From assembly GCF_004369205.1 (NCBI RefSeq), contig NZ_QFGA01000001.1, positions 1,364,001 to 1,428,000 of the forward strand: a stretch of DNA of 64,000 nt, written 5' to 3'. Every line of letters starts with the position of its first letter. Within the stretch, counting starts at the first letter, position 1. Made by a program: the position numbers and the translations under genes. The notes below the pieces were generated by a model. That model was not told the DNA's origin, did not search any database, and saw only the letters and a program-made list of their open reading frames with translations. Source of the stretch: Pelotomaculum schinkii (GTDB lineage Bacteria > Bacillota > Desulfotomaculia > Desulfotomaculales > Pelotomaculaceae). Positions 7,728 through 25,350 of the stretch are shown here, piece by piece.

Positions 7728-7902
7728 GAACACCCCTCGCTTTGACCGAATGCTTTCGTATAAGATCAGCGACAACCTGATCCGTTTTCTTTTTATCTCC
7801 GGCACAATATCGCATGCGCGCTTTATCTTCTTTTGTGAGAGGCATACCTTCCATCGCCATAGAGGCGTTCACATCCTCAATCATTCGCTCTAAATCTTTC
7901 AT
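7711..7902 (-). CDS. VbhA-type antitoxin of the Fic pair
   Basis: This is a 63-residue helical protein immediately upstream of the Fic gene. It contains the inhibitory motif SMAMEG, which fits the (S/T)xxxE(G/N) signature by which class I antitoxins place a glutamate in the Fic active site and block ATP. The following PLTKEDKARMRYCAGDKKK resembles the VbhA helix. It starts at ATG 7902 with GAGG about 8 bases ahead and has a good promoter upstream. No break is seen, so the antitoxin outlasts its damaged toxin. It may now be a relic or may still neutralise a related Fic protein elsewhere in the genome. Confidence 0.72.
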   Translation of the reverse strand: MKDLERMIEDVNASMAMEGMPLTKEDKARMRYCAGDKKKTDQVVADLIRKHSVKARGVHEQKL

Positions 7903-8773: not shown

Positions 8774-8844
8774 TGTTCGTAAGTTAGAGTAAAATAATTC
8801 CATAATATTTTTGATGAACTCCGCAAAAGAAAAGGATGTTTCTA

Positions 8845-9078
8845 GTGGATTATATGCTTATTTCCGAGGCTTCAAAAAAGTGGGGTATCACCACGAGACG
8901 CATTCAGACCCTCTGTATCGAGGGTCGGATTAAAGATGCAGAAAAAGCAGGTAGCATTTGGCTTATTCCCAAAAATACTGAGAAACCTGCTGATGCCCGC
9001 ATAAAGAGTGGAAAATATATTGGCTATTGTGAAAGATACAAAAATAAAAAGAAGCTTAACAGCGATATCGATCCATAA
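8845..9078 (+). CDS. Small helix-turn-helix DNA-binding protein at the head of the cluster
   Basis: This protein of about 77 residues has a winged helix-turn-helix of the MerR/excisionase type: LISEASKKWGITTRRIQTLC, followed by GRIKDAEKAGSIWLIPKNTE. The turn and the IPK wing are typical of short proteins annotated as excisionase-family or helix-turn-helix proteins. GTG 8845 is preferred because AAAGG (8831-8835) lies 9 bases ahead. ATG 8836 directly abuts the AAAGG and is less likely; ATG 8854 is also possible. It sits 85 bases ahead of the giant helicase gene, same strand, so it is a candidate regulator of the cluster or a recombination-directionality factor left by the neighbouring element. 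Confidence 0.62.
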   Translation: MDYMLISEASKKWGITTRRIQTLCIEGRIKDAEKAGSIWLIPKNTEKPADARIKSGKYIGYCERYKNKKKLNSDIDP

Positions 9079-9162
9079 AAATGACAGGACATCAAAAACA
9101 ATTTGTCGTAAAGCTAGATAGAAACAAAATATAAGCATTTTACCTGAAACGAGGTTTATGAT

Positions 9163-12100
9163 ATGTCTGAAATGGTGTTTATAAGCAGCTCCACAGGTTC
9201 AAAGGTTGTTGTTGTGGTATGTCCCAAATGCGGCAGGATCAGCCGTCAGATTCTCAGGGACGTATATTCGCGGCAACCTGTTTGTGCCCTGTCTGCAGAA
9301 CATAAGTGTCCTGTTTGTGGTGCTATATATTCTTCATGCAACGCGGCACGAAGCAACAGTTGGGCAAACGCCTATAACCGCTATTCCAGAGATGCACAGG
9401 GGTATAATAATTCCATCAAGGAGAACTATCAGCGAAGCCTTTCAGCACAGCATGAGCCTGCCGTTGCTGCTCAAGCGCCGGCTCAATTTGCTGCCACTGC
9501 CCCCGTACAGCAAAGACAGCAAACCGCCTTTGTTCAGATGGCTCCTGTGCCAGCGCCAGCTCCCTCTACTCCGCAAGCACCGGCACAGGTAATTAATGAG
9601 GGTGCGATACGAAAGATGTCTCAAGAGACTTTGTTGGGCGCTCTACAGCAAGCCATAACTCAGATGCAGGCTGAGGAATCCAAAGCTCCGGAAGCGGCCC
9701 CTCCTCCCAAAATAGAAGACGCGATACCGCTGCCGTCTTTTACTTCGGCTCCGGTTCAGCCTCCTGCTCAGTTTGACGCCTTGGATCGAAAAATAGAGTA
9801 TTGGAAGAATCAGCTTCTGGATTTCGGTAAACGCAACAAGATGATCAATTACCGCGAAACAAAGCGGGCGACGCTCCGCATCTTAGAGCCTGAGTTTTCC
9901 GAGCTGTTCAATCGCCTTGCCCTCAATGAAGAAGAACTAACCTTCCAGCGCCCAATCGATAAGGACTCTGATTTGAGAACCTTCTCGATGCTTTCGCTGC
10001 TGGAAACCTTGTCATATCCTCTTCCGGTACATATTGGAGATATTAAAACTGAAGGAACTATTTTAGAGCGGCAGAAAACACTAAAAAATCTCCGTACCAA
10101 ATCCAAGCTTGCCAGAGACGAACAAGGTACAAATATACTCTACTTGTCCTTTGGGTTTATCGAATGGAAAGAGAACAATGTGGCCAGCTCCCCCTGGCTA
10201 AAATCCCCGATTCTTATGATGCCGGTTTCTCTCAAGATAGAATCTATCCAAGCCCCCTATACTATCAGTCGTTATGATGATGAGATCGAAGTCAACCCGA
10301 CGCTCGACTACCTGTTTAATCAAGAATACGGCATCGATCTGCCCACCTTCGAACTCAAGGACGCATCTTCGATTGATCAGTACATGGAAGTAATCGAGGA
10401 TATCGTCGACAAGCGTGGCTGGAAGCTTGTGCGAGAAGTCAGCATGGGATTGTTGTCTTTCCTCAAAATCAGTATGTACCACGATCTAAACAATAACCGC
10501 GAAAGGATGCTGAACAATCCCGTAATTCGAGCCATCACAGGAGATACCAGCGTAGCCAATGTAATCCCCAAGGAATATCTCAATTTCAGTTTTGACCGCG
10601 TGGCTCCATACGATTGGTATCAAGTAGTCAATTCAGACTCCAGTCAACAGGAAGCGATTCTGCTCTCCAAGATTGGCGTCAGTTTTGTTATGCAAGGCCC
10701 TCCCGGCACTGGCAAAAGCCAGACGATAACGAATATTATAGCCGAGGCTCTGGCAGATGGTAAAAAGGTTCTGTTTGTTTCCGAAAAAGCTGCGGCACTT
10801 CAGGTCGTTTATAAGCGGCTTTCGGAAGTTCATCTGGATGATTTCTGCCTCGCCCTGCACAGCCATAAAGCCAACAAAAAAGAGATTCTCGATAGTATTG
10901 GCGACAACTTGAAACTGCCACACAATCGTGTTAAGGACAGTGTTATGGCTGAGCTTAACGAGCTGTTCCACGACCGTGAATATCTGAATCAATATGCCCA
11001 TGAGCTTCATGAAGAAGTTGCTCCCCTCGGAGAGAGCCTCTATGTCGTATTCGGGAAGCTGTCAAAGCTAGATACTGCAACGGCGATCCCGTTTGTGATC
11101 GACAATCCCACTGCCGTTTCTGCTGACCAGTTCAATACAATGATTTACTGTGTCAGGAATTATGCAAAAGCTCTTGCTAATATGGGTGGTAAACTGACAG
11201 ATAACCCTTGGTATGGTTCGGTTGTGACCTCAATAAGTCAAGAATTCAAATCCCAATTATTGGCTGAAACGCAAGGCTTGGATCAGCAGCTCTCCTCATT
11301 ATATGAGGCTTTATCCAATTATCAGAACAAATATGGTTTTGGCGGAGAAGCTACTTGGAACGACGTTCAGCGAATTATTTCTATGCTCAGCGAAATAGAA
11401 AAAACCCCTCTGTTCCCGTTCGACTGGTGCAGCTCGGAAAGACGTGCACAGCTTCTTTCTGCCGCAAATAAAGCCAAAAAGTTGAAGCTGAAGTATTTAT
11501 CAGTGCTGACCGAAGTACAGAGTCATTTTGCAGACACCATATTTGATGTTGACTTGAACGCATGGACTGAATCTATGAACGCAAACATTGCGGCAATTCA
11601 GCAAATCGGTAATTATTCGACTTTGTTGGCCGGGGATATATTCACTAGAGTAGAAAATGTCAATGTCTATGCCAAAGCCTTAGTTACTCAGATAACAGAA
11701 ATCATCGCGAAATACCATGAGGCTATTGACATTCTTCATATCGACATTACGGATACATTTGAAAACATGAGCAAGATCGGACAAATCGCAGAGGCTTTAA
11801 TTACCATGACCGCTGCAAGGCGTGAATGGTTTGACACTTTTATTTATAACCAGGCTGTCCATCAAATTGATATTGCAAAGTCGCATACTGCAAGTGTTCA
11901 GGCAAAGTCGCAGGCTTTATTGGAACATTGGGAACCTGAAGTTTTTACAATTAACGCAGATTCAATGCTGGAACGTTTTATGACGAAATATAACAGCAGC
12001 TTTAAAGATTCGGTGATTGCATACAGGCAAGATGTTGAGACTATTTACGGTATGTCAAAGTCTGTTATTCAAAAAACCAGCGACGATGTTATTGTTTCGC

Positions 12101-15100
12101 TGTTACAAAATATCAAGGCCATTAATACAGAAAAGCAAAGGATGGCGGAAAACGAAACGCTTATATGCTCTCATTTTGGAAGTAATTACTTCGGTTTGGA
12201 CACGGATTGGAATAATTTACACGCGGTTTATTCACGGGTTGGCCGTCAAATAGAAATGGTGAAATCAAACTCTGACAGCATTCACATCTGGATGCAGGCC
12301 TTATTGGAACAATGGGAGCCGGAAGTTTTCGAGATTGACACGGAAGCAATGCTGGGACGTTTCAAGACGGAGTATACTGGCATTTTCAGACGTTTAAAAT
12401 CTGCATACAGAAGGGATGTTAAGGCCATTCGCTGTGTATCCAAATCTGTTGGTGGAAAAATAAATGATGATGTTATTGTTTCGCTGTTACAAGATATCAA
12501 AGCCATCAATACAGAAAAGCAACGAATGGCGGAAAACGAAACGCTAATACGCTCTCACTTCGGAAACTATTACTTTGGGTTAGATACGGATTGGAATAGT
12601 TTACGCGCGATATATTCACGGGTTGGCCGCCAAATAGAAATGGTGAAATCAAATTTTGATAATATCCAGGCCCAGATGAAGGCTCTGCTGGAGCAATGGG
12701 AGCCAGGAATATTATCCATTGACGCGGAAGCGATGTTGGTACGCTTTACGACAGAGTATAGTAGAGTTTTCACAGATTTAATGTTTGAATATCAAAAGGA
12801 TGTTGAGTTCATATGTGGGATGTCTAAATCTATCAGAAAAGAAATTGGCGATGAAGAAATTATTATACTATTGCAAAAACTGAAAGATATTAATTCGGAG
12901 AAGCAATGGTTTGCCGATAACGAGCAGGTCTTGCGTTCCTGTTTTGGTGATTACTATCTCGGGATGAGTACTGACTGGCAGAGCTTAAGTACTGGACTGT
13001 CTTTTGTCGCATCTCTGTGTAAGATCTTTCCTCACGGGATTGTATCATCAAAGATTATCGACATAATCTGCGATAAGGCTTCCCACTCAGCGGAGTATTC
13101 GAAGCTTACTGGTATTGCACATACCTTGTCCCAAGAGAACATATCAGATGCTCAGATTAAATCGGGTAACGCCACTACTCACATAGCTGATTCGGCAGGA
13201 CTTTCAGTTGAGAAAGACATTCTGCCTTGCTTAAGTGCGCTCAGAGCAGCAAGCGCAAAGATTATCGAATGCATCAATACGGTTCAGCGCCACGCGAAAG
13301 ATGAAATTCCGCTGGCCGATATGACCATGCATATTAGTAAGGCTGTGGAAGTTAAGGCAGCCAAGGCCGATTTGCTTGCGAATGGAGCACCCAACAAAGA
13401 ACTCTTTGGTGACAGGTATCAAGAGATTGAAACGGAATGGGATGCCATAATTGATGACCTAGACAAAGTCGGGGATCTGTTTGCGTGTAAAGATTTTGAG
13501 TTTACTACAGAGGAATTTATAGAATTGCTCTGCGATGATCGTGAAGTGCGTTTGGATCTGTCAAAAGCAAAAGATGACTTACAAAACAGATACACTTCTG
13601 CACAGCAACCGGTTCGTAGTTTTGTCAAGCTGTTCAGAGAAGATGCGGATTTATTCAACTCTTCTCTGATTGACCTTGCTATGCGGTTTAGACGATGCAT
13701 CGATAATTACAGTATGCTAGATAAGTGGCTGGACTACACAGAAACCAAAGCCGAATGTGATAAAGTCGGCCTTTCGGACTTTACTACAAAAATTGATGCT
13801 CAAGATAACTCTATCCCAGGCGTCTCTGATGCATTCAGCAGGGGCTTTTATCGACAATGGAGTGTAGCGGTTATCGACAGCAAAGCCTCCGTGCAGCAGT
13901 TCCGGCGTCGTGTTCATGACGAGAGGATCAACAGATTTGTGGTGCTTGATGACAAGCAATTGGCAATCGCTCAAATGCGGATCCGAGACAAGATTATCAG
14001 CACTTTCCCAGATACCAATAGAGTGATGACAGCAAATGATGAGATGAGTATCCTATTGCATGAGCTTGGGAAAAAGCGCCGGATCATGCCTCTGAGAAAG
14101 TTGTTCCGTTCTATCCCCAATCTACTGCTGACACTTAAACCATGCCTGATGATGTCACCGCTTTCAGTTGCCTATTTCCTCGAAGCTGAATCTTATCAGT
14201 TTGATATGGTTATCTTTGATGAGGCGTCTCAGATTTTCCCGCAAGATGCTATAGGCGCAATATTCAGAGGCGCACAAGTCATCATTGCCGGCGACAGCAA
14301 ACAGCTTCCTCCGACAAACTTCTTTGCCGCCAGCACCAATAACAGCGAGAATGACTATGATAACGAGGACGATAAGGAATATGAAGATGCAATCTACGAC
14401 TCGATCCTCGAAGAAACCACAAATGTACTACCAAACCGCACTCTTCTCTGGCATTACAGGAGTAAGCATGAACATCTTATAGCATTTTCAAACCAAGAAA
14501 TCTATAAAAACGAACTGGTGACTTTCCCGAGCAGTATAGAAAAAGAAGAAGATACCGGTGTTGAATTTGTCTACGTTGAACATGGCGCCTATGAAAGCGG
14601 CGGTAAAAACTGCAATGTTCAGGAAGCAAAACGCTGTGTTGAACTTGTCAAGGACCACATTAAAAAGCATCCCACTCGCTCACTTGGGATAATAGCATTT
14701 AGTGAGAAACAGCAGCAGGCCATATCTTATGAGATACAGCGTTTCAGAGAGCAGAATCCAGAATTCGAAGAATTTTTCGCTGAAGACAAAGAGGACGAGT
14801 TCTTCGTGAAGAATCTTGAAAATGTTCAAGGCGATGAACGAGATACAATTATTTTCAGTATCGGTTACGCCAAGACAAAAGACCAACGTGCAAATAACAG
14901 GCCTATGTCAATGCGTTTTGGCCCACTTGGGCATCAGGGCGGTGAGCGCAGACTGAATGTGGCAATCACCCGTGCAAAACGAAATGTCAAACTTGTGAGT
15001 TCAATCCTGCCTTCGGATATCGATCTTTCTCGCACAGAATCCGAAGGTGTGCGAATGTTACGTTCATATATCGAGTTCGCTATGAATGGGTCAGCTTCCC

Positions 15101-16128
15101 TTAGATCAGGACGTTCTGATGCTGGCAGCAATGATGATTTTGTGGATACTATCAGTGATTACATTGAACGAAATGGATATCGCATTAGAAAGCACGTTGG
15201 TTGCTCTGGATATAGGATCGATATCGCAGTTGAACATCCAGAGAAAGATGGACGTTTTATCGCGGGCATTGAGTGTGACGGTTTCTCATATATCGCTGTA
15301 AAAACCGCAAGGGATAGGGATCATCTTCGCAAGTCTGTACTGAAAGCGATGGGATGGAGCATCTATCGCGTCTGGTCGACGGAGTGGATTAAGAATCCAG
15401 AAATTGAAGGAGAAAAGCTCATTTCGTTCATTAAGGAAACTGTAGATAATTACCATGAGGATATTACACCAGTAATAACAGAACAGTCTGTTTCTGCGGT
15501 TCCAGACACATATGAAATAGTCGAGGAAATTAAGGAAACTCCTTCTACGGCAACAAAAAATGGAACGCCTGATAATCCATACGGTTTTGACTATTACACT
15601 GAAGCCGTATGGTCAGAAACTCCGAACATCCTGCAGTATCAGGGCACGAACAGAATAATTGAGGAAATCAAATATATAGTTGGGATCGAACAGCCCATTA
15701 GCAAGGATTTGTTGTATCAGCGAATGGCGGGAGCCTTTGGACGGCAAAAAGCTACCGCACCAGTCAGAAATACAATTAATCAAGCCTTACGCGCCACAAA
15801 AGCAAAAGAAATTCTAACCAATTCTGACGGGTTTGTGATCTTGGCTGGTTTTTCAAATTTAAGAGTTAGAATCCCCAAGCAGGGCGATACTCCAAGACCA
15901 ATAAACTATATTTCACCGAGCGAAATCGGATTGGCTATGCTGACCATCGCTTCTCACACCTTTGGTCTTTCTTCAGAAGGGTTGATAGATGAAACAGCCA
16001 GAGTGTTGGGATATGCCCGTAAGGGCGAAAGAATCATGACTTGTGTGAAAGAGGCATTGTCTCGGCTGATTTCAAGCGGACAAGTCAAGCTGATCGATGG
16101 CAAGGTCAATATTGTGGAGGAAGTTTGA
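9163..16128 (+). CDS. Giant zinc ribbon-DUF4011-SF1 helicase-Vsr-like nuclease-DUF3320 protein
   Basis: This 2,321-residue protein probably unwinds and cuts nucleic acid. Domains in order are: an N-terminal zinc ribbon (C20, C23, C49, C52); a Pro/Ala/Gln-rich linker (about 90-205); DUF4011 (from about 210, KIEYWKNQLLDFGKRNKMIN); and an SF1 helicase with Walker A GPPGTGKSQT (from G512). A long helical insert (about 640-1620) with three tandem repeats follows. Then come helicase motif II FDEAS (D1686-E1687), GDSKQLPPT (motif III), VQGDERDTIIFS and LNVAITRAKR (motifs V-VI). Next is a Vsr/MTES_1575-like PD-(D/E)xK nuclease (D2020, E2037-C-D, then RDRDHLRKS and GWSIYRVWS). DUF3320 closes it, near 2170-2230. 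It starts at ATG 9163 behind GAGG and ends one base before the kinase ATG. Related helicase-Vsr proteins occur in defence islands; the exact role here is inferred. Confidence 0.92.
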   Translation: MSEMVFISSSTGSKVVVVVCPKCGRISRQILRDVYSRQPVCALSAEHKCPVCGAIYSSCNAARSNSWANAYNRYSRDAQGYNNSIKENYQRSLSAQHEPAVAAQAPAQFAATAPVQQRQQTAFVQMAPVPAPAPSTPQAPAQVINEGAIRKMSQETLLGALQQAITQMQAEESKAPEAAPPPKIEDAIPLPSFTSAPVQPPAQFDALDRKIEYWKNQLLDFGKRNKMINYRETKRATLRILEPEFSELFNRLALNEEELTFQRPIDKDSDLRTFSMLSLLETLSYPLPVHIGDIKTEGTILERQKTLKNLRTKSKLARDEQGTNILYLSFGFIEWKENNVASSPWLKSPILMMPVSLKIESIQAPYTISRYDDEIEVNPTLDYLFNQEYGIDLPTFELKDASSIDQYMEVIEDIVDKRGWKLVREVSMGLLSFLKISMYHDLNNNRERMLNNPVIRAITGDTSVANVIPKEYLNFSFDRVAPYDWYQVVNSDSSQQEAILLSKIGVSFVMQGPPGTGKSQTITNIIAEALADGKKVLFVSEKAAALQVVYKRLSEVHLDDFCLALHSHKANKKEILDSIGDNLKLPHNRVKDSVMAELNELFHDREYLNQYAHELHEEVAPLGESLYVVFGKLSKLDTATAIPFVIDNPTAVSADQFNTMIYCVRNYAKALANMGGKLTDNPWYGSVVTSISQEFKSQLLAETQGLDQQLSSLYEALSNYQNKYGFGGEATWNDVQRIISMLSEIEKTPLFPFDWCSSERRAQLLSAANKAKKLKLKYLSVLTEVQSHFADTIFDVDLNAWTESMNANIAAIQQIGNYSTLLAGDIFTRVENVNVYAKALVTQITEIIAKYHEAIDILHIDITDTFENMSKIGQIAEALITMTAARREWFDTFIYNQAVHQIDIAKSHTASVQAKSQALLEHWEPEVFTINADSMLERFMTKYNSSFKDSVIAYRQDVETIYGMSKSVIQKTSDDVIVSLLQNIKAINTEKQRMAENETLICSHFGSNYFGLDTDWNNLHAVYSRVGRQIEMVKSNSDSIHIWMQALLEQWEPEVFEIDTEAMLGRFKTEYTGIFRRLKSAYRRDVKAIRCVSKSVGGKINDDVIVSLLQDIKAINTEKQRMAENETLIRSHFGNYYFGLDTDWNSLRAIYSRVGRQIEMVKSNFDNIQAQMKALLEQWEPGILSIDAEAMLVRFTTEYSRVFTDLMFEYQKDVEFICGMSKSIRKEIGDEEIIILLQKLKDINSEKQWFADNEQVLRSCFGDYYLGMSTDWQSLSTGLSFVASLCKIFPHGIVSSKIIDIICDKASHSAEYSKLTGIAHTLSQENISDAQIKSGNATTHIADSAGLSVEKDILPCLSALRAASAKIIECINTVQRHAKDEIPLADMTMHISKAVEVKAAKADLLANGAPNKELFGDRYQEIETEWDAIIDDLDKVGDLFACKDFEFTTEEFIELLCDDREVRLDLSKAKDDLQNRYTSAQQPVRSFVKLFREDADLFNSSLIDLAMRFRRCIDNYSMLDKWLDYTETKAECDKVGLSDFTTKIDAQDNSIPGVSDAFSRGFYRQWSVAVIDSKASVQQFRRRVHDERINRFVVLDDKQLAIAQMRIRDKIISTFPDTNRVMTANDEMSILLHELGKKRRIMPLRKLFRSIPNLLLTLKPCLMMSPLSVAYFLEAESYQFDMVIFDEASQIFPQDAIGAIFRGAQVIIAGDSKQLPPTNFFAASTNNSENDYDNEDDKEYEDAIYDSILEETTNVLPNRTLLWHYRSKHEHLIAFSNQEIYKNELVTFPSSIEKEEDTGVEFVYVEHGAYESGGKNCNVQEAKRCVELVKDHIKKHPTRSLGIIAFSEKQQQAISYEIQRFREQNPEFEEFFAEDKEDEFFVKNLENVQGDERDTIIFSIGYAKTKDQRANNRPMSMRFGPLGHQGGERRLNVAITRAKRNVKLVSSILPSDIDLSRTESEGVRMLRSYIEFAMNGSASLRSGRSDAGSNDDFVDTISDYIERNGYRIRKHVGCSGYRIDIAVEHPEKDGRFIAGIECDGFSYIAVKTARDRDHLRKSVLKAMGWSIYRVWSTEWIKNPEIEGEKLISFIKETVDNYHEDITPVITEQSVSAVPDTYEIVEEIKETPSTATKNGTPDNPYGFDYYTEAVWSETPNILQYQGTNRIIEEIKYIVGIEQPISKDLLYQRMAGAFGRQKATAPVRNTINQALRATKAKEILTNSDGFVILAGFSNLRVRIPKQGDTPRPINYISPSEIGLAMLTIASHTFGLSSEGLIDETARVLGYARKGERIMTCVKEALSRLISSGQVKLIDGKVNIVEEV
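11893..13020 (+). repeat. Three tandem 384-bp repeats inside the helicase gene
   Basis: Equivalent codons recur at exactly 384 bases (128 codons): the LLEHWEP/LLEQWEP segment at 11917, 12301 and 12685, and the DDVIVSLL/DEEIIILL segment at 12085, 12469 and 12853. Units 1 and 2 are close to identical over about 190 bases, including silent positions, whereas unit 3 has diverged. The repeats encode a long helical (coiled-coil-like) array between the helicase halves. Unit 3 fades out near 13020. The high DNA identity of units 1 and 2 indicates recent duplication and possible length variation between strains. Confidence 0.9.
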
Positions 16129-16129
16129 A

Positions 16130-17824: not shown

Positions 17825-17854
17825 CATCGCATAGCGAGAAAGAGGTAAATAATT

Positions 17855-19219
17855 ATGAGTGGCCCTAAGATATCCGTATATGAACTCTCTGCTTGGGCGA
17901 GGCGCAACCTTAGTGGGCAAATCAGATGTCAACAACAGACTTTTGCTTGCGTCGAACAGATTCGCAACCTGATTCGAGAAATATTAAGCTCAAGTGGAAG
18001 CATTGATTCAATATTAAGCAATCTTTCTATGCTTCTCGAAAGAACCGGAAAAGGCGCAGAAGAAGTGCAGTTGCTGACTGATTTGAAAGCAACGCTTAAA
18101 AAGGACTGTGCAGCATTCCAGAAGGATCTTGAGGACAACATCCCACAGCCCGCAACAACGATTACAATTAGCGATGAAGCTCTTGCTGATAAGAAAGCAT
18201 TATTGGGAAAAATAAAAGCAATCCAAACGGAGGCCGCTTCATATCAGGCCAATCTGTGCAAAGTATTATCTCAGGGCGGTCATCAGAATAAGGAGCATTC
18301 GGGCGAGCTTTATGATGATATCGTCTCGGATATCAACGCAGCCGCTTCGTTTGATATTGCCGTTATCGATGTTGCTAAGGATGACTTCCATACGACGTAT
18401 AAAATGCTTGAAAGAAAACTTAGCTCGCTCATGCTGGACAGCTCCTGTCCAGCAGAGATCAAAGCCGAAGCAAAGAAAGCTGTAACTGCACTTGGGAAAA
18501 TTACAGATCTTGATTACTTAAAGACATTTGAAGCTGTTTCTGTTAAGCCGTTGTTGAAAAAGTATCAGGATGCCGTTTCGCGCCTTTCAAAAATACAAAA
18601 CGATTATCAGATGCTATTAACCCGTTATTTAGCCCTATTCACCTTGACAGGCAGCGAAGCAAAAACCGTTCCCATAACTGATGAAGCAATCTCGCTTTTA
18701 CAAACCGAGATTTCCAAACTCGAGAAGCAGCTCGTGAGGCAAAAAGAGCAGGAATACATCAGCAGTTGTGTTGATCAGGTTATGGTTGAGATGGGATATG
18801 ACCTCCTCGGACATCGTGAAGTAACTAAGCGAAGCGGAAAACGCTTCAGAAATGAGTTGTATTCTTATGGAAAAGGAACTGCGGTCAATGTTACCTATGC
18901 TTCCGATGGTCAAATCACTATGGAACTTGGTGGAATTGACAGAGCTGATCGCGTTCCGAATCTGGAAGAAACGGATATGTTGCGCGAAGACATGGAATCA
19001 TTCTGCGAAGATTTCGCCGAAATCGAGAAAAGATTACAAGCAAAGAGCGTCATCATCGGAAAACGCATTGCCATGTCTCCGCCCTCGACAGAATACGCTT
19101 CAATCATCAACATCAACGATTATGAAGTAAAGTCATCCAAGCCAATCGCTACGATAACTGTCACCAACAAGCGCAAGAGAACGTCAGTAAAACAGACCAT
19201 GAGAAGGGATGATAGCTAA
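17855..19219 (+). CDS. Coiled-coil protein of unknown function, conserved N-terminal MSGPK start
   Basis: This 454-residue, mostly helical protein begins MSGPKISVYELSAWARRNLS. It has long heptad-like segments (about 25-300), and the C-terminal third (about 305-440) looks globular, with DQVMVEMGYDLLGHREVTKR and a DGQITMELGG strand pair. No enzyme motif or membrane segment is seen, and I do not recognise a named family. AGAGG precedes ATG 17855 (the kinase stop lies 30 bases upstream), and its stop overlaps the next ATG (TAATG at 19217). Lying between kinase and FHA gene, it could be the phosphorylation substrate or a scaffold of the helicase; this is inference from position only. Confidence 0.75.
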   Translation: MSGPKISVYELSAWARRNLSGQIRCQQQTFACVEQIRNLIREILSSSGSIDSILSNLSMLLERTGKGAEEVQLLTDLKATLKKDCAAFQKDLEDNIPQPATTITISDEALADKKALLGKIKAIQTEAASYQANLCKVLSQGGHQNKEHSGELYDDIVSDINAAASFDIAVIDVAKDDFHTTYKMLERKLSSLMLDSSCPAEIKAEAKKAVTALGKITDLDYLKTFEAVSVKPLLKKYQDAVSRLSKIQNDYQMLLTRYLALFTLTGSEAKTVPITDEAISLLQTEISKLEKQLVRQKEQEYISSCVDQVMVEMGYDLLGHREVTKRSGKRFRNELYSYGKGTAVNVTYASDGQITMELGGIDRADRVPNLEETDMLREDMESFCEDFAEIEKRLQAKSVIIGKRIAMSPPSTEYASIININDYEVKSSKPIATITVTNKRKRTSVKQTMRRDDS

Positions 19220-19836
19220 TGGCTTTAGAAAAATATAAGGTTTGCCCTGCTTGTGGTGAACACAATCCACCCGTTCTCTTAGAATGTAAGAAATGTGAAA
19301 CCGATCTCACGGGAGTTAAGGTCGTTGACAGCGCCTCTGAGCTTAGTGATACCCTTGAAAAGGAAGACTCAGCCAAAGTCGATACCCAACAAGAGTTAGT
19401 GAAAATCTGCGATTGCGGTGCACATAATCCTCCCCAAGCAAGGAAGTGTATTTCCTGTGGAGAAGACATATCAGACATACGACCGACTGCGACCTTTCAG
19501 AAGCAAAACATATATGCGCTTCAATCCGTATCTGACGATTACTCTTTTGTCATCGATAAGCCTGTTACCATCATTGGTCGCGAGGCAGAAATGCAGGATT
19601 ACCTCGCTCAGAAGCCTTATGTGAGCCGACAGCACGCTAAGTTTACCATTGTAGGAAATGAAGTTTTTATTGAGAATTTGAGCAGTACTAATCATACTTT
19701 CGTCAATAATGCTCTAATATCCAAAGAATCGCCAACTCTCCTGAAGGAAGGCGATGAAATTGGACTTGGTGGAAAGGTTATAGATGAACAGCGCCAAGCC
19801 AACGCAGCGTATTTCATTTTTAAGGTGACATCATGA
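19219..19836 (+). CDS. Double zinc-ribbon FHA-domain protein (phospho-threonine reader)
   Basis: This 205-residue adaptor has two zinc ribbons (CPACGEHNPP...CKKC at C9, C12, C23 and C26, then CDCGAHNPP...CISCGED). A C-terminal FHA domain (about 110-200) follows, with the signature IIGREAEM, VSRQHAKF, and NLSSTNHTFVN. Gly-Arg, Ser-Arg-x-His and Asn are the phospho-peptide contacts of FHA domains. It should bind a phospho-threonine made by the neighbouring kinase. The zinc ribbons may bind nucleic acid or protein; the giant helicase has a similar one. Its start overlaps the preceding stop by one base and its stop overlaps the radical-SAM ATG (ATGA), so stoichiometric expression is likely. Confidence 0.92.
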   Translation: MALEKYKVCPACGEHNPPVLLECKKCETDLTGVKVVDSASELSDTLEKEDSAKVDTQQELVKICDCGAHNPPQARKCISCGEDISDIRPTATFQKQNIYALQSVSDDYSFVIDKPVTIIGREAEMQDYLAQKPYVSRQHAKFTIVGNEVFIENLSSTNHTFVNNALISKESPTLLKEGDEIGLGGKVIDEQRQANAAYFIFKVTS

Positions 19837-20450
19837 ATGTAGCCAGAATCCTTTATCCAGTTAAGGTGCTCGGCCCCGGCAATCGCATTGGGATTTGGCT
19901 GTGTGGATGTTCACGTGAATGCGCTGGATGCAGCAATCCAGAGCTGTGGCACATGCGGGATGAATACGAAATAAGCGTCTCACAATTATTGAATCTTATA
20001 ACTGAGATAGCAAATAATCGGTATGTAGACGGCTTCACTATTACTGGCGGCGAACCTATGGATCAGAGCCAAGAACTGGCCGTCTTTATAAAATATATAA
20101 AAAAAATAAGCGATGATATTCTTATCTATTCGGGGTATACGATTGATGCTTTATATAAAAAAGATGCGCCAGACATGGGCAGCATCCTTAACTCTATTGC
20201 CATATTAATTGATGGAGCATATATCGAAGATCGCAATAACAACACGCCTCTTGTTGGCTCGGACAATCAAAAAATCAACATACTCAATTACAGATACAAG
20301 GAACGCTATGAGAAATATTTAAGTACAATAAACAATCAGATACAGAATTTCACCACGACCGATGGAGTCATTTCGGTAGGAATTCATAGAAGCAGCTTTA
20401 AAAAAGAACTTGATGAACGAATTGATTGGGTTAATAGAGATCGGGAGTAG
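19833..20450 (+). CDS. NrdG-like radical-SAM/4Fe-4S activating protein
   Basis: This 205-residue protein resembles the anaerobic ribonucleotide reductase-activating enzyme NrdG. The cluster motif is CSRECAGC (C26, C30, C33; Cx3Cx2C), preceded by GNRIGIWLCG. The SAM-binding GGE motif is in FTITGGEPMDQS. NrdG normally makes a glycyl radical on NrdD, but no NrdD or other glycyl-radical protein is encoded nearby. It overlaps the FHA gene by four bases (ATGA), which ties it to the cluster rather than to nucleotide metabolism. It may modify or activate a cluster protein, or act as a redox/oxygen sensor; both are inference. The C-terminal part (LVGSDNQKINIL then a helical tail) is shorter and less typical. 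Confidence 0.88.
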   Translation: MNVARILYPVKVLGPGNRIGIWLCGCSRECAGCSNPELWHMRDEYEISVSQLLNLITEIANNRYVDGFTITGGEPMDQSQELAVFIKYIKKISDDILIYSGYTIDALYKKDAPDMGSILNSIAILIDGAYIEDRNNNTPLVGSDNQKINILNYRYKERYEKYLSTINNQIQNFTTTDGVISVGIHRSSFKKELDERIDWVNRDRE

Positions 20451-20863
20451 GCTAATGAACGGGACATATAATGAAAAATTAAAAACAGGTGGAGAACTAC
20501 TGGTTAGTGCAATTAATTGGTCGATACAGTACTACTTCTCTGGCCCAGAGATATAATGGAACTTTCGTAATGATTTCAGGCAATATGATTGATATCTATA
20601 GATGCATGGGATAAAAATTATAACAAATATTGTGAACTACAGCAAAGTATACCTGCTATCTGGTGGGCAATATGAAACAATTGGACTGATGAACACGTCC
20701 ATCAGGATTGATGGATTCTTCGAAGGAGTTTGCCTTCAAAGTTACCTCGCTCACAAGCTGGTATTGTTGAGGTGATAAGTGATTATGAGTATGCTCGTGA
20801 TCGAGCACCAAAGCTTATGGAAATGTTAAATTAATCTATAAAGGCTCAAGAGGAGGGTTTGAA
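20451..20863 (+). pseudogene. Gap with traces of a decayed gene
   Basis: These 413 bases have no intact gene. A 34-codon frame (20455-20559, starting MNGTYNEKLKTGGELLVSAI) and two overlapping frames further on (RIDGFFEGVCLQSYLAHKLV, and SQAGIVEVISDYEYARDRAP, ending KLMEMLN at 20835) read like coding sequence but in different frames. The last one stops 28 bases ahead of the AAA+ gene, where an operon member would be expected to end. I read this as one or more lost genes of the cluster. The family is not recognised. Confidence 0.35.
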
Positions 20864-22744
20864 ATGGCTGACTATATATCAAAGTGGCACCGTGAACTCG
20901 GTATCTTTAGCCGAATTAAGCCTTTGATTATTATAGAAGGAAATGTTTTAGATGTTTATCAATACCCGTTGGAAGGAAGTATTTCCAAGGGGAGTATTCT
21001 TAGGCTTCCAGAATATCTTCATTACTATTTCAAAGACATAGGCTATCAAACCATCGTGTTCTTTGACAGCATGCAGGGCTTTTATAATACCTGTGAAGAC
21101 GGCCACATTGATGAATTCGCACGCTTGAGCAATACGAGAGACGATGGTAAATTCATTCGGTCAGAATTCAAAGGCAAGACAAATTCTGCCTCTGCTATCG
21201 TGCGCTCTGCTGTAAGTCAAAATCAAAGTTCAACAGCCATTATCATGAATCTTGCCTCCCGCTACATTACTTCACCGGACAATCTGGAGCAAGCTGAGGT
21301 AGACAGCTTCACAAACTTACTGCTGGCGTCACTTGAAGGGAAAGACGTCCGGACAGAAGGAGGCGCTCTGAAGAATATCGTCGTAATGATCGTAAACAAA
21401 ACCAATGACGTTCCGGTATGGTTTTACCATGACAACCCGAATGTTAAGACGATCACAATCAGCACACCTTCCAAAGAGGAACGCGAACAGCTCGTAAAAG
21501 GTGAAAATTTTACCAGTTTCTTTGCCCCAGATATATATGCGGAAGATATCGCTTACTATGAAGAACATCCAGATGAGCTTGAAAAAGTACAAGATAAATT
21601 CGTCGGTCTGACAGAAGGATTCAGCTTCACGGAGATTAACGGTCTTCGCCGCCTGTGCAAGAACGAGCGAACCCATATCCGTCACATGTCAACGGTCATT
21701 GATCTGTACAAATACGGGATTAAGGAAAACCCTTGGGATACGCTGGATGAAAACGAACTAAAAAATGCACATGAGGATTTTGAAAAGAGGATCAAAGGGC
21801 AGGACTATGCGATAACCAAAACGCTCGACGTTGTCAAACGCGCAGTGACCGGTATGGCAGGGCTACAGCACTCATCCCATACGAAGCCCAAGGGCATTCT
21901 CTTCTTTGCAGGGCCTACTGGTACCGGCAAGACCGAAACAGCCAAAACGCTTGCCGAAAAGCTGTTTGGAGATGAAAGCTGCTGTATTCGCTTTGATATG
22001 AGTGAATATGGTCAGAGCCATAGTGACCAGAAGCTCCTTGGGGCGCCTCCTGGATATGTCGGTTATGAAGCCGGAGGCCAACTTACAAATGCAGTTAGGG
22101 AAAATCCTTTCTCCATTCTGTTGTTTGACGAAATAGAAAAAGCGAATCCTTTGATCTTTGATAAGTTCCTGCAAATATTAGAGGACGGCCGTATGACCGA
22201 CGGGCAAGGAAATACAGTGTATTTTTCCGAGTGTATTATTATTTTTACAAGCAACCTTGGTATCTTTACTTGGAATGCTATGGGCAGCAGAGAACCCAAT
22301 GTCACCGCAGAAATGGAATACTCGGAAGTTCAAAAAAAAGTTAGGCAAGCTATTGAAGACTATTTCAAGCTGGAGCTCGGTCGTCCTGAGATTCTCAATA
22401 GAATCGGAGAGAACATCATCGTATTCGACTTCATTCGGCCACCAGTTGCTGAAATCATCTTGGATGCTTTGGTAAACAAGATAATCAAAAACCTTGCAGC
22501 GGAAAAGAGAATCGACCTGGTATTGTCAGACGAAGCGAGAGCGACGCTCCTTGAGAAGTCTCTCGGCAATCTTGCAAACGGTGCCAGAGGCATCGGTAAC
22601 ATCGTTGAGAGTTTGCTCATAAACCCCTTGTCTCGTTATCTCTTTGACAACTCCATAAAAGGAGATGAAAGAATTGTCATCAGATCAATCGATGCTGAGA
22701 ATATCCCGTTTAATCTAAATTGTACTCGAGGTGAGGTCGAATGA
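20864..22744 (+). CDS. ClpA/ClpB-like AAA+ ATPase with a degenerate N-terminal module
   Basis: This 626-residue protein has its C-terminal half (about 300-600) as a standard Clp/Hsp100 D2-type AAA+ module. Walker A is GPTGTGKTET (from G350), followed by the substrate-pore segment GAPPGYVGYEAGGQLT, Walker B ILLFDEIEK, sensor-1 IIFTSNLG, and the Clp C-terminal lid. The N-terminal half (1-290, PLIIIEGNVLDVYQYP...) looks like an AAA-like fold without a Walker A, so only one ATPase ring is expected. No ClpP-binding loop or N-terminal Clp repeat is seen, so it is more likely an unfoldase/remodeller than a protease partner. GAGGAGGG lies ahead of ATG 20864, and the stop overlaps the PP2C ATG by four bases. 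Confidence 0.9.
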   Translation: MADYISKWHRELGIFSRIKPLIIIEGNVLDVYQYPLEGSISKGSILRLPEYLHYYFKDIGYQTIVFFDSMQGFYNTCEDGHIDEFARLSNTRDDGKFIRSEFKGKTNSASAIVRSAVSQNQSSTAIIMNLASRYITSPDNLEQAEVDSFTNLLLASLEGKDVRTEGGALKNIVVMIVNKTNDVPVWFYHDNPNVKTITISTPSKEEREQLVKGENFTSFFAPDIYAEDIAYYEEHPDELEKVQDKFVGLTEGFSFTEINGLRRLCKNERTHIRHMSTVIDLYKYGIKENPWDTLDENELKNAHEDFEKRIKGQDYAITKTLDVVKRAVTGMAGLQHSSHTKPKGILFFAGPTGTGKTETAKTLAEKLFGDESCCIRFDMSEYGQSHSDQKLLGAPPGYVGYEAGGQLTNAVRENPFSILLFDEIEKANPLIFDKFLQILEDGRMTDGQGNTVYFSECIIIFTSNLGIFTWNAMGSREPNVTAEMEYSEVQKKVRQAIEDYFKLELGRPEILNRIGENIIVFDFIRPPVAEIILDALVNKIIKNLAAEKRIDLVLSDEARATLLEKSLGNLANGARGIGNIVESLLINPLSRYLFDNSIKGDERIVIRSIDAENIPFNLNCTRGEVE

Positions 22745-23484
22745 TTTACGTTGCCACACGAGCGGGTAACGGGAAAACAGTAAGTGAAGATCGCGTTCTT
22801 GTCGGACGTAATGTGATATGTAATGCCTCCGCTGACTTTCCTATTCCCGCAAGAGGTTTTGTTTGCGTTGCAGATGGGGTTGGCGGAAATACAGGAGGCG
22901 CTGAAGCATCTGAGTTCGTTGTCAATGCGCTGATGTCATTTGCCGAAACTAATGAAGAACTCTCCAAAGAGGCGGTCACTAAGCATTTGTGGAAGATCAA
23001 TTCCGAACTGCTTTCCTTTGGTCAACAGCAAAGTGGTCGATACCAATTGGCGACAACACTGACCGGAGTGCTATTTTCCGAAACCGAAAAGTATCTCATC
23101 CATATTGGAAATACAAGAGCCTATGTTGTGCAGGCGCATTTTCTAAAGCAACTGACATATGACCATACCGTAAGCAACTGGCTAAAGAGTATGGGAAGAA
23201 TTGACGAGGCTGAACAATGCAATAAGAATGAGATCACTAATTGCTTCGGCGGCGGCAATGAAACTTTGTTTAAACGGCTGGATATAAGTTCTTTACAAGC
23301 ATTTCACACAATGCTATTAACATCCGATGGAGTCCATGATTTTGTAAGTGTCGCAGAATTAGAGCAATTCATGTCATCGGATATTCCGGGAAACTGTAAA
23401 TGTGAGAGAATCGTTGAGTCAGCGCTGAGTGCTGGATCACAGGATGATTTATCTGTAGTCATCATCAATTCACAGGAGGGATAG
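22741..23484 (+). CDS. PP2C-family Ser/Thr protein phosphatase of the cluster
   Basis: This 247-residue protein has the PP2C/SpoIIE-type metal-binding pattern: an early acidic residue in SEDRV (D17), VCVADGVGGNTGG (D45), LLTSDGVHD, and SQDDLSVVII near the end. No membrane segment is seen. It overlaps the AAA+ gene by four bases (ATGA). It should reverse the action of the cluster kinase, holding the system off or resetting it. Bacterial kinase/PP2C pairs are common, but an FHA reader, a helicase-nuclease and a Clp-like ATPase in the same run are not the usual cell-wall (PrkC/PrpC) setting. Confidence 0.93.
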   Translation: MIYVATRAGNGKTVSEDRVLVGRNVICNASADFPIPARGFVCVADGVGGNTGGAEASEFVVNALMSFAETNEELSKEAVTKHLWKINSELLSFGQQQSGRYQLATTLTGVLFSETEKYLIHIGNTRAYVVQAHFLKQLTYDHTVSNWLKSMGRIDEAEQCNKNEITNCFGGGNETLFKRLDISSLQAFHTMLLTSDGVHDFVSVAELEQFMSSDIPGNCKCERIVESALSAGSQDDLSVVIINSQEG

Positions 23485-23488
23485 AAAA

Positions 23489-24544
23489 ATGGGTTTTCGC
23501 ATGAGAAAAAGCATAAATCTCGGGGGAGGTTTCAAAATCAATCTCAGTAAATCTGGCATTGGATACAGCTGGGGTGTCCCAGGCTATAGGATCACTAAGA
23601 CAGCCAAAGGAGCCACGCGCAGAACTTACTCGATACCTGGCACCGGTATTTCATATGTTGATGAAACAGGCCACAATTCGCATAACCACGCCAACAATAA
23701 CGGTACAAGAACCCGCACTAATCAATATGCAGACCCATCCGGTTACATCCAGACACCAGGTTACGATCAAGTTCGAAATATCGAAATTGCAGATATTGAA
23801 CAACTCAAGACAGCGGAAGCTGATAATATCACTGCAACTATAGAGAAAACGATGAGGTTCAATAAATGGGGCACAATCCTCTTGTGGTGTGGACTGTTAG
23901 GCTTTGCTCAGTGGTATTTTTTTGTTCTGCCTATTATCGGGATTGTGCTGAAAGTAGTTGCCCATAAAACCGGAGTAGTTGATCTCGACTACTCATTTGA
24001 CGACGAGAAAGCAGATGAATACAATAGGCGAATAGGTGCTTGGTTGGTCTTGTCTGAAGGTGACCGAGAATGGCAAGTAATTCAAGAGGCTTCTGTATCC
24101 AACACAAAGGTTAACGCCGGAGCGGGAAGAAACATTAAGAGGGTTGTTTGTAGAATAGAGAAAGGAACTCCGTATTATATCAGGACAAATGTTGAAACAA
24201 TTCAGTTAAAGCTTCAAAAAGAATTGCTTCTGTTCCTTCCGGACAAAGTATTTATCATCAGAAAAAAGAAAGTTGGTGCTGTAAACTACAGCGATGTGGT
24301 AATACGGACTTCTCAGGTCAAATTCGTTGAGACCGGCAGGGTTCCAAAAGATGCTCAAGTCGTAGACAGCACATGGCAATATGTGAACAAAAACGGAACC
24401 CCAGATCGGCGCTATAGCAATAACAGACAGCTTCCGATCTGCCTCTATGGTATAGTAACAATCACTTCACCGAATGGCATAAATGTTGAAATGCAATTTT
24501 CCAATATTCAGAAGACTCAAGATTTTGAGGCATTAGCGCGCTAA
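23489..24544 (+). CDS. DUF4236 membrane protein closing the cluster
   Basis: This 351-residue protein begins with a DUF4236 domain: MGFRMRKSINLGGGFKINLS and GIGYSWGVPGYRITKT, with GTGISY. DUF4236 is a short beta domain of unknown function often found at the start of envelope proteins in conflict loci. A Gly/Asn-rich linker follows, and then one long or two short hydrophobic segments at about 130-155 (WGTILLWCGLLGF..WYFFVLPIIGIVLKVV). The remaining 190 residues are soluble, mixed alpha/beta, and unrecognised. It starts 5 bases after the PP2C stop behind GGAGGG. It may be a membrane-acting effector or an anchor; no toxin motif is visible. Confidence 0.8.
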   Translation: MGFRMRKSINLGGGFKINLSKSGIGYSWGVPGYRITKTAKGATRRTYSIPGTGISYVDETGHNSHNHANNNGTRTRTNQYADPSGYIQTPGYDQVRNIEIADIEQLKTAEADNITATIEKTMRFNKWGTILLWCGLLGFAQWYFFVLPIIGIVLKVVAHKTGVVDLDYSFDDEKADEYNRRIGAWLVLSEGDREWQVIQEASVSNTKVNAGAGRNIKRVVCRIEKGTPYYIRTNVETIQLKLQKELLLFLPDKVFIIRKKKVGAVNYSDVVIRTSQVKFVETGRVPKDAQVVDSTWQYVNKNGTPDRRYSNNRQLPICLYGIVTITSPNGINVEMQFSNIQKTQDFEALAR

Positions 24545-24742: not shown

Positions 24743-25350
24743 GCAAAAGGCATAGGCATTGCTATTTATACGGAAGATTTTCAAAACGAGTTTATTTCAC
24801 TTACGGATATTGCAAGATATAAAAGCGATGAGCCTAAAGATGTAATTAAAAACTGGATGAGAAGCAAAGATACAATTGAATTCCTGGGTCTTTGGGAGCA
24901 ATTACATAATGACAGATTTAAAGGGGTCGAATTCGACGCCTTTAGAAGACAAGCAGGTTCAAATGCTTTTACATTGTCTCCGCAGAAGTGGATAGAAAAT
25001 ACAAATGCAATTGGTATCGTTTCTAAATCAGGTCGCAATGGCGGAACTTTTGCTCACTCCGATTCATGACATATGCCAGTGAAGCAGATGTGTTGAATGT
25101 AGCATTGTTTGGAATCACAGCAAAGCAGTGGCGGGAAGAACATCCTGATAAGAATGGAAATATCAGAGATTATGCCACATTAAACCAACTGCTGGTTTTG
25201 GCTAACATGGAAAGCTATAACGCGATTCTGATTGAACAAGGCAAACCTCAATCAGAGAGACTTCAACTGTTGAATAAATTAGCCATTCGTCAGTTAGAAG
25301 CAATTCAGAATATTGGTATTGATACAATTAAAAAATTGGAAGGTAAATAA
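24743..25350 (+). pseudogene. KilA-N domain gene with lost start, internal deletion and frameshift
   Basis: The first frame reads GIGIAIYTEDFQNEFISLTD and WIENTNAIGIVSKSGRNGGT, the KilA-N DNA-binding domain of phage and virus-type proteins. It has no start codon and ends at FAHSDS-stop (25069). The second frame (25066-25350) reads TYASEADVLNVALFGITAKQ and NIRDYATLNQLLVLANMES, the usual C-terminus of the same protein family. The central part (normally the FEFASWLS..EFKLYL segment and a coiled coil) is missing. The gene is thus a deletion remnant marking the edge of the accessory island. Beyond it the strand and gene style change. Confidence 0.75.

What the first reader, a model, noticed from the sequence alone, without database searches (positions are those of the whole stretch)
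8845..24544. Nine-gene cluster joining a giant helicase-nuclease to a kinase/FHA/PP2C circuit, a radical-SAM protein and a Clp-like ATPase
Seen: nine co-oriented genes, several with ATGA/TAATG overlaps. They are a helix-turn-helix protein, a zinc ribbon-DUF4011-SF1 helicase-Vsr-like nuclease-DUF3320 protein, a Ser/Thr kinase, a coiled-coil protein, a zinc-ribbon FHA protein, an NrdG-like radical-SAM protein, a Clp-type AAA+ protein, PP2C and a DUF4236 membrane protein. The cluster lies between a restriction island and a KilA-N remnant. Known: kinases occur in BREX (PglW), Mokosh combines a helicase and a kinase, TerY-P triads have kinase and PP2C, and helicase-Vsr proteins occur in defence islands. 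Inferred: invasion changes threonine phosphorylation, the FHA protein recruits partners, and the helicase-nuclease is released; PP2C resets it. The full set, with radical SAM and Clp-like ATPase, does not match any system I can name.
Basis: partly seen in the sequence, partly recalled or inferred. Interest (0 to 1): 0.92.

Follow-up and report, generated by a model that had tools for sequence, protein, structure and literature searches.

The report
Kinase-linked helicase-nuclease operon with radical-SAM partner
A bacterial gene cluster links a giant DNA helicase-nuclease to a protein kinase switch, a Clp-like remodelling motor and a radical-SAM enzyme; many of the same partners recur together in distant bacteria and on plasmids, so it looks like a modular, untested defence system that matches no described one.

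Summary
The genes are real and in place, though I count eight, not nine: membership of the small HTH gene is unsupported. The core (Ser/Thr kinase, MSGPK coiled-coil protein, FHA, NrdG-like radical SAM, Clp-like AAA+, PP2C) recurs, whole or in part and in shuffled order, in several phyla. It is not tied to one helicase: in the close clade, 12 of 18 readable loci have the DUF4011-SF1-REase helicase upstream of the kinase and 6 do not. In Rhizobium and Caballeronia, kinase, DUF4011, SF1 helicase and REase form one ~2,090-residue protein beside AAA, radical SAM and an MSGPK protein. On plasmids of five other proteobacterial genera, a different SF1 helicase plus a PIN protein takes that place. Catalytic motifs are mostly kept; the AAA is a ClpB/ClpC-like double ring with a dead first ring and no ClpP-docking tripeptide. 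Several loci lie on plasmids or beside restriction or PglZ genes. Best reading: a phospho-gated, AAA-remodelled helicase-nuclease defence module with swappable effectors. Defence was not tested, the radical-SAM step is unknown, and helicase-free cores leave a non-defence role open. No PADLOC or NCBIfam model seen covers the set; the open literature searched does not describe it.

The parts
9163..16128 (+). HEL: 2321-aa zinc ribbon - DUF4011 - SF1 helicase - PD-(D/E)XK REase (MTES_1575) - DUF3320 protein
   Evidence: Pfam; PADLOC PDC-S37 E=0; NCBIfam ProA 1350 bits against cut-off 1500; Walker A, DEAS and D2020/E2037 aligned in relatives
11917..13068 (+). Three ~128-aa tandem repeats inside the long insertion between helicase motifs I and II of HEL
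   Evidence: TRF 384-bp period; repeat starts at residues 919, 1047, 1175
15139..15432 (+). Vsr-like REase domain of HEL with D2020 and E2037
   Evidence: Pfam; alignment
16130..17824 (+). STK: Ser/Thr kinase, ~564 aa
   Evidence: Pfam; HxD Asp in 38 of 39 and DFG Asp in 37 of 39 relatives; start by ribosome-binding site
17855..19219 (+). CC: MSGPK-type helical-hairpin protein with an alpha/beta head built from both termini
   Evidence: alignment; AlphaFold2 pLDDT 85.4; no significant PDB match
19219..19836 (+). Zinc ribbon - FHA protein
   Evidence: Pfam; Zn Cys and FHA G121/R122/S137/H140/N159 conserved in 34-40 of 40
19833..20450 (+). NrdG-like small radical SAM protein
   Evidence: Pfam; NrdG model 103.5 bits against cut-off 126.1; C29/C33/C36 in 60 of 60
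20451..20863 (.). Gap with frame-broken traces similar to the AAA N-terminus: probable decayed partial AAA copy (weak)
   Evidence: weak tblastn matches to AAA of L007 and L058, in matching order; no intact ORF
20864..22744 (+). Clp-like AAA+: degenerate D1 plus D2 with intact motifs
   Evidence: Pfam; model pLDDT 87.6; ClpC/ClpB fold Z 31.4, rmsd 7.5, 518 aligned; D1 lacks Walker A in 32 of 32, D2 Walker A Lys and Walker B Asp-Glu in 32 of 32
22741..23484 (+). PP2C phosphatase
   Evidence: Pfam; D19/D47/D198/D237 in 27 of 27
23489..24544 (+). DUF4236 protein; a DUF4236 gene also lies directly beside AAA in Caballeronia L149
   Evidence: Pfam
8836..9078 (+).
   Evidence: HTH_59 below cut-off; no clear match elsewhere, thinly testable

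Best explanation
A mobile, modular anti-mobile-element system. Its constant part is a Clp-like AAA+ remodeller, an NrdG-like radical SAM protein and (in most forms) an MSGPK or similar helical adaptor; a Ser/Thr kinase with FHA and PP2C adds a reversible phospho-switch in many forms. The effector slot holds an SF1 helicase with a nuclease: DUF4011-helicase-REase (as here, or fused to the kinase in Proteobacteria), or a different SF1 helicase plus a PIN protein. Proposed course: a trigger changes the kinase/PP2C balance; phosphorylated partners are read by FHA; the AAA motor, which pulls or unfolds but lacks a ClpP dock, remodels a held complex through the adaptor; the helicase-nuclease then acts on foreign DNA. 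The radical SAM step (maturation or modification of one partner) is of unknown chemistry. Shown: gene content, recurrence, fusion, motif conservation and predicted folds. Inferred: defence, trigger, order of steps and targets.
For: Partners recur in several phyla: among 70 AAA-bearing loci outside the gut-Clostridia AAA-only group, rSAM lies near in 62, CC in 45 (30 by profile, 7 by the PIN-type profile, 8 by the MSG[PAS]K start only), STK in 43, FHA in 38, PP2C in 29 and a helicase in 25 (contig ends lower these). Fusion of Pkinase-DUF4011-SF1-REase beside AAA and rSAM in L141, L149 and L150. Helicase-PIN-CC-AAA-rSAM order on plasmids of Moellerella, Polaromonas, Photobacterium, Acinetobacter and Leisingera. 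Core-linked HELs are one clade (100/100) and the fused ones another, with stand-alone homologues between, so the link probably arose at least twice. Catalytic residues mostly kept. Neighbours: HsdM (window; HsdS and HsdR read), GmrSD and HsdR (L024), PglZ and DEAD-HNH (L020), ArdA (L140); an anti-phage dCTP deaminase ~14 kb from AAA in L142.
Against: No phenotype. 6 of 18 readable close-clade loci lack HEL; several cores (L099, L101-L103, L105) sit among genes that look ordinary (my reading). HEL and the AAA rarely share a genome. 33 gut-Clostridia loci have the AAA without the core nearby. PIN-type CC is not shown homologous to the MSGPK family (E 0.24). The long helicase insertion is not specific to core-linked HELs. 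The flank comparison (212 against 39 PADLOC families) is not a matched control, and the control also had defence-like hits.
Confidence: 0.55

Rival explanations
1. The core is a general phospho-regulated remodelling module (comparable to the PpkA/Fha/PppA/ClpV set of type VI secretion) for host physiology, and helicases are only one of several things it was coupled to.
For: Helicase-free cores in several genomes, some beside genes that look ordinary (L099, L103, L105, my reading); an FtsK/SpoIIIE-type ATPase with the core in L056/L058/L060/L079 (cluster c19, Pfam on the L058 copy); DUF4407 proteins in L069/L073; AAA alone in 33 gut-Clostridia loci.
Against: A helicase of these kinds in 11 of 12 plasmid loci examined (the 12 come from the records found); repeated, non-sister helicase associations and a fusion.
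Confidence: 0.22
2. Kinase toxin / PP2C antitoxin pair of the KKP type: phage infection tips the balance, kinase activity stops growth, and the other genes are accessory.
For: KKP is a defence module of Ser/Thr kinases, FHA and PP2C (PMC11341870, passages read); kinase, FHA and PP2C residues are mostly intact.
Against: One kinase, separate FHA, no cold-shock domain among the nine proteins; PP2C was not detected in the fused forms, and neither STK nor PP2C in the helicase-PIN operons, though AAA and rSAM remain.
Confidence: 0.13
3. HEL is a stand-alone anti-phage gene (ProA/Hhe kin) that merely sits next to an unrelated kinase operon in a defence island.
For: HEL homologues occur without the core in many genomes; PADLOC lists the family as PDC-S37, which I take (recalled) to mean a single-gene candidate; nearest stand-alone HELs share the long insertion.
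Against: 1-bp spacing and same strand in the window; HEL upstream of STK in 12 of 18 readable loci; single clade; gene fusion in another phylum.
Confidence: 0.08

Closest known systems
ProA / PDC-S37 and Hhe (DUF4011 anti-phage helicase-nucleases)
   Same: HEL matches PDC-S37 (E=0), ProA (1350 bits) and Hhe (888 bits).
   Different: Below both NCBIfam cut-offs (1500, 2000); embedded in an eight-gene operon.
Mokosh (MkoA/MkoC)
   Same: Kinase plus SF1 helicase; MkoA model hits HEL 9e-29 and STK 7e-23; the Moellerella helicase hits MkoA 7e-102.
   Different: PLD nuclease (definition recalled) not found; here REase or PIN protein plus AAA, rSAM and CC, with FHA and PP2C in some forms.
KKP kinase-kinase-phosphatase defence module
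   Same: Ser/Thr kinase, FHA and PP2C in a mobile defence operon (PMC11341870, passages).
   Different: One kinase, no cold-shock domain; helicase-nuclease, AAA and rSAM present.
Type VI secretion threonine-phosphorylation pathway with ClpV
   Same: Kinase, FHA, PP2C and a ClpB-like AAA (kinase and FHA: start of the abstract of PMC3953482 in the listing; PppA and ClpV recalled).
   Different: No secretion genes among the nine; ClpV and TagH models far below cut-off.
MADS (MAD6 kinase), BREX (PglW) and TerY-P
   Same: Kinases in defence operons (MAD6 and PglW models hit the kinase domain).
   Different: No methylase, PglZ/BrxC or vWA protein among the nine; scores far below cut-offs.
NTP-dependent conflict systems of Kaur et al. 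2020
   Same: Reports radical SAM, FHA, kinase and PP2C components in conflict systems (PMC7159879, passages).
   Different: Those passages describe vWA/MoxR or GTPase-centred systems; none of the passages seen describes this AAA-rSAM-CC-helicase set.

Membership tests
ProA (NCBIfam NF058533) | score at or above the curated cut-off of 1500 bits | tested here: not met
   1350 bits; a close relative, not an equivalog by NCBI's rule
Hhe (NF042953) | score at or above 2000 bits | tested here: not met
   888 bits
PDC-S37 (PADLOC candidate) | strong match to the profile | tested here: met
   1452 bits, E=0, five stretches; PADLOC's own thresholds were not applied; covers HEL only
Mokosh | SF1 helicase with kinase domain | tested here: inconclusive
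   MkoA model hits HEL and STK as separate proteins at moderate scores; fused in the Rhizobium and Caballeronia copies
Mokosh | PLD-family nuclease (recalled) | tested here: not met
   no PLD family at E <= 0.01 in any of the nine proteins
KKP | two kinases, one with FHA and one with a cold-shock domain, plus PP2C | tested here: not met
   one kinase, FHA on a separate protein, no CSD
BREX | PglZ, BrxC/PglY and PglX with a PglW kinase (recalled) | tested here: not met
   none of these listed among the nine; PglW model 29.4 bits against 990
MADS | MAD6 kinase at cut-off 460 bits | tested here: not met
   78.8 bits
TerY-P | vWA protein TerY (recalled) | tested here: not met
   no vWA domain at E <= 0.01 in the nine proteins
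Type VI secretion phospho-pathway | TssH/ClpV and TagH models at cut-off | tested here: not met
   ClpV1 213.9 of 885 bits; TagH 23.2 of 120 bits
ClpA/ClpB | equivalog score | tested here: not met
   ClpB 258.9 of 1232 and ClpA 224.3 of 993 bits, over D2 only
ClpA/ClpC-type proteolytic unfoldase | ClpP-docking [I/L]G[F/L] loop in D2 | tested here: not met
   no such tripeptide in the window loop; in 6 of 32 rows a similar string occurs, overlapping the sensor-1 SN-LG in five and in a long insert in one
NrdG | TIGR02491 cut-off 126.1 bits | tested here: not met
   103.5 bits
NrdG / glycyl-radical activases | glycyl-radical enzyme partner nearby | tested here: inconclusive
   crude motif scan over the loci gave nine scattered hits, none recurring beside the core
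Anti-phage defence system | protects against phage or plasmid | not testable with these tools
   needs experiment

The most novel reading that the evidence does not exclude
A categorically new class of prokaryotic immune system whose constant heart is not the nuclease but a radical-SAM-matured, Clp-like AAA+ / hairpin-adaptor machine: the radical SAM protein chemically arms a partner (possibly the conserved G-Y/F and Cys head of the adaptor), the pseudo-D1 AAA ring loads or releases interchangeable helicase-nuclease effectors, and Ser/Thr phosphorylation sets the threshold.
Probability: 0.3. Interest if true: 0.92.

Novelty: new variant of a known kind. Interest (0 to 1): 0.74.

Why it matters
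If true, bacteria use reversible Ser/Thr phosphorylation and an unfoldase-type motor to hold and release DNA-cutting helicases, with one control core serving several effectors. I know of no defence system that combines a radical SAM enzyme with a Clp-like ATPase (recalled). The compact four- and five-gene plasmid forms found here make it directly testable, and the AAA N-domain profile gives a marker to find more.

Tried and rejected
Core-linked HELs have 908-1207 residues between Walker A and DEAS (8 of 8 with both motifs) and 11 more distant stand-alone ones 518-646, but three of the nearest stand-alone relatives, read further, have 914 (L111/L153), 1213 (L113/L154) and 912 (L112/L155); a fourth (L110/L152) has no Walker A in its frame. 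So the long insertion belongs to the wider clade and is no evidence for the link; I lowered nothing but the weight of that point and set the 'unrelated neighbour' rival from 0.07 to 0.08.

Rejected or unsupported: the HTH gene as a member (no clear match; only L007, L024 and L143 have sequence to look at upstream of a core-linked HEL). Rejected: a DUF4236-AAA pair in gut Clostridia. My first clustering suggested it, but the ~220-aa neighbour matches only the C-terminal half of the DUF4236 proteins of L009-L012, L019 and L020, and not significantly the window's own. Rejected: an intact gene between rSAM and AAA in the window. No glycyl-radical enzyme seen nearby (crude motif scan).

Inconclusive: fold of CC. 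Foldseek gave nothing at E <= 0.001; VIA Z 10.1 to ALIX helices (147 aligned, 3.9 A), 8.8 to spermine synthase (101 aligned, 2.8 A) and 7.9 to the Chk1 KA1 domain (86 aligned, 2.4 A) are within what common arrangements give. PIN-type CC against MSGPK CC: E 0.24; Rhizobium CC against MSGPK CC: E 6.5e-5, probability 64%.

Flank test: 128 of 133 listed flank proteins of 18 loci (one dropped for the residue limit, one long L142 ORF, three that are CC) hit 212 PADLOC families at 1e-15; 113 of 133 randomly listed control flank proteins (cut to fit the limit) hit 39, among them an SNF2-type helicase family in 4 members. Many models are paralogous, so family counts overstate, and the control is not matched: read only as a hint. 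Promoter-like sites were not above shuffles; terminator-like sites were within one sd. No Rfam match or tRNA in the window. AAA N-domain: 19 plasmid records, no phage record.

Literature: no description found (PMC CC0/CC BY/CC BY-SA library only; no preprints, most subscription journals missing; listings, not whole papers). The paper behind the NCBIfam name ProA was not found.
Full report
OBSERVATION. Junction sequences show TAATG and ATGA overlaps. The kinase most likely begins at 16130, one base after the HEL stop. The HTH gene at 8836 is below the Pfam cut-off and had no clear match in other loci, few of which reach that far upstream. Between rSAM and AAA lie 413 bp without an intact gene; weak traces of an AAA N-terminus suggest a decayed partial copy. 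Cluster GC is 0.434 against 0.493 for 25435-64000.

CONSERVATION. A scan of GTDB genomes with the AAA gave 80 loci (the best 80 of 539 relatives); 12 plasmid loci and 10 further genome regions were added. Profile searches over these loci show the core in Bacillota in several orders: HEL-STK-CC-FHA-rSAM-AAA-PP2C-DUF4236 in L010, L011, L012, L019 and L020 (with extra ORFs in between in L010, L011 and L019), and STK-CC-AAA-rSAM-FHA-PP2C in L106 and L107. A Cloacimonadota MAG (L061) has all six core genes; Actinoplanes (L068) has AAA-rSAM-FHA-PP2C-STK; Methylocaldum (L069) and a Desulfuromonadales MAG (L073) have STK, FHA, AAA and rSAM with an MSGxK protein. Among 103 loci with the AAA N-domain, 33 are a gut-Clostridia type without the core nearby. 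In the other 70, rSAM is near in 62, CC in 45 (30 by profile, 7 by the PIN-type profile, 8 by its MSG[PAS]K start only), STK in 43, FHA in 38, PP2C in 29, and a helicase in 25. Contig ends cut many loci, some may be redundant, and loci were chosen by AAA similarity, so these are not frequencies in nature. L024 shows no rSAM.

THE HELICASE IS ONE OF SEVERAL EFFECTORS. In the close clade (26 loci), HEL lies upstream of STK in 12 of 18 loci where that place can be read (window, L007, L008, L010, L011, L012, L019, L020 as a 229-residue contig-edge piece, L024, L067, L071, L143); it is absent in L013-L016, L022 and L099. HEL homologues are more common than the core: 35 of 396 sampled genomes of the phylum at E <= 1e-20 against 13 of 398 with the AAA N-domain; only the window's genome is in both lists. 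In trees the core-linked HELs are one clade (100/100). A long insertion between motifs I and II looked at first like a mark of core-linked HELs, but three of the nearest stand-alone HELs have it too, so it is not.

FUSION. On plasmids or megaplasmids of Rhizobium (L141, L150) and Caballeronia (L149), AAA and rSAM are followed by one protein of about 2,090 residues with Pkinase, DUF4011, SF1 helicase and MTES_1575 REase, and then an MSGPK protein. In L149 a DUF4236 gene stands directly before the AAA. Two more Rhizobium records have the same order with the fused gene split in frames (L144, L151). The fused helicases are a separate clade from the Bacillota core-linked ones, with stand-alone homologues between (the tool warns of long branches). 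So the association most likely arose at least twice, which is good evidence for a functional link.

ALTERNATIVE EFFECTOR. Moellerella, Polaromonas, Photobacterium, Acinetobacter and Leisingera plasmids carry SF1-type helicase - PIN protein - CC-like protein - AAA - rSAM (record annotation); a Bacillota genome has the same five genes (L108). Pfam shows AAA_11/AAA_12 and PIN_4 in the two copies scanned, Moellerella and L108; the Moellerella helicase resembles MkoA of Mokosh (7e-102). The CC-like protein is helical in look, but homology to the MSGPK family is not shown. STK, FHA and PP2C were not detected in these operons.

PARTS. AAA: the model (pLDDT 87.6) matches ClpC/ClpB over D1 and D2 (best Z 31.4, 518 aligned, rmsd 7.5). 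D1 has no Walker A in 32 of 32; D2 Walker A lysine and Walker B Asp-Glu are kept in 32 of 32. The window loop has no ClpP tripeptide, so remodelling rather than proteolysis is likely. CC: a helical hairpin whose two ends build an alpha/beta head (pLDDT 85.4); no convincing known fold. rSAM: three cysteines in 60 of 60; kinase HxD Asp in 38 of 39; PP2C metal-binding Asp in 27 of 27; FHA Arg in 38 of 40. HEL: catalytic Glu in 11 of 11 core-linked and 4 of 4 fused rows; the first Asp in 10 of 11 and 4 of 4 (L024 has Asn).

NEIGHBOURHOODS. Window: type I restriction genes (HsdM; HsdR and HsdS read from ORFs). L024: GmrSD and HsdR just before FHA-AAA; L020: PglZ and a DEAD-HNH helicase after DUF4236. 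L140: ArdA. L142: anti-phage dCTP deaminase about 14 kb from the AAA. L150: a reverse-transcriptase gene before AAA. L107: genes that I read as type III CRISPR components (recalled from sequence, not scored). Against: L099 lies beside genes I read as histidine-biosynthesis genes, and L101-L103 and L105 beside genes that look ordinary (my reading). A rough PADLOC comparison of flanks gave 212 families for 128 proteins against 39 for 113 controls.

MECHANISM. Shown: partners, adjacency, fusion, motifs, predicted folds. Inferred: the kinase/PP2C pair sets a phosphorylation state read by FHA; the AAA motor with CC holds or releases the helicase-nuclease; rSAM matures one partner. The forms without FHA and PP2C suggest that the phospho-switch is an added layer over a basic AAA-rSAM-(CC)-helicase machine. 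I give 0.95 that this is a real conserved multi-gene system, about 0.7 that it acts against mobile elements, and 0.55 for the explanation as stated.

KNOWN OR NEW. HEL is close kin of ProA, PDC-S37 and Hhe but below the NCBIfam cut-offs. In the scans made, no PADLOC or NCBIfam model named a system for CC, FHA, rSAM or AAA as used here; hits were to general or other families. Literature searches in the open PMC library found no description. Passages of three papers were read: KKP (PMC11341870), conflict systems (PMC7159879) and Pseudomonas hotspots (PMC10250203). Mokosh, BREX and TerY-P definitions are recalled. I rate it a new variant of a known kind (kinase-linked helicase-nuclease defence), with a real chance of something categorically new.

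Noticed in passing
L009, L010, L011, L013, L019 (between STK and CC): A variable slot holds ORFs without a convincing Pfam match (three tandem paralogues of 373, 393 and 734 aa in L009; 209, 390, 241 and 265+234 aa in the others): candidate sensors or extra effectors.
   Followed up: partly
L009:8911-9993, L011:7841-9984 (between rSAM and AAA): ORFs of one cluster lie exactly where the window has its 413-bp gap; the L009 copy is a BspA-type leucine-rich repeat protein (Pfam LRR_5).
   Followed up: partly
window 11917-13068: Three ~128-residue tandem repeats inside the helicase insertion of HEL (384-bp period).
   Followed up: partly
L056, L058, L060, L079: A form with rSAM, STK, a CC-like protein, FHA and AAA is preceded by a ~1130-1170-aa protein of one cluster (FtsK/SpoIIIE-type in the L058 copy) instead of a helicase.
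   Followed up: partly
L025-L055 (without L053), L057, L059, L062: 33 gut-Clostridia loci carry an AAA of the same family without the other core genes; in at least 14 a ~210-280-aa protein homologous to the C-terminal half of some DUF4236 proteins is nearby.
   Followed up: partly
L069:4313-5524, L073:6958-8160: DUF4407 proteins stand in the operon between kinase and FHA.
   Followed up: partly
L143:16180-19038: The Aristaeella lactis 44-kb plasmid record has the HEL-to-PP2C set followed by a DUF6273 gene and a second large protein kinase.
   Followed up: no
window 7398-7805, minus strand: A short ORF that reads like the N-terminal part of a Fic-type protein (recalled, not scored) lies between the restriction genes and the cluster.
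   Followed up: no
window 25066-25350: 94-aa ORF matching only the C-terminal part of PADLOC family PDC-S22 (5.7e-37): likely remnant of another defence gene.
   Followed up: partly
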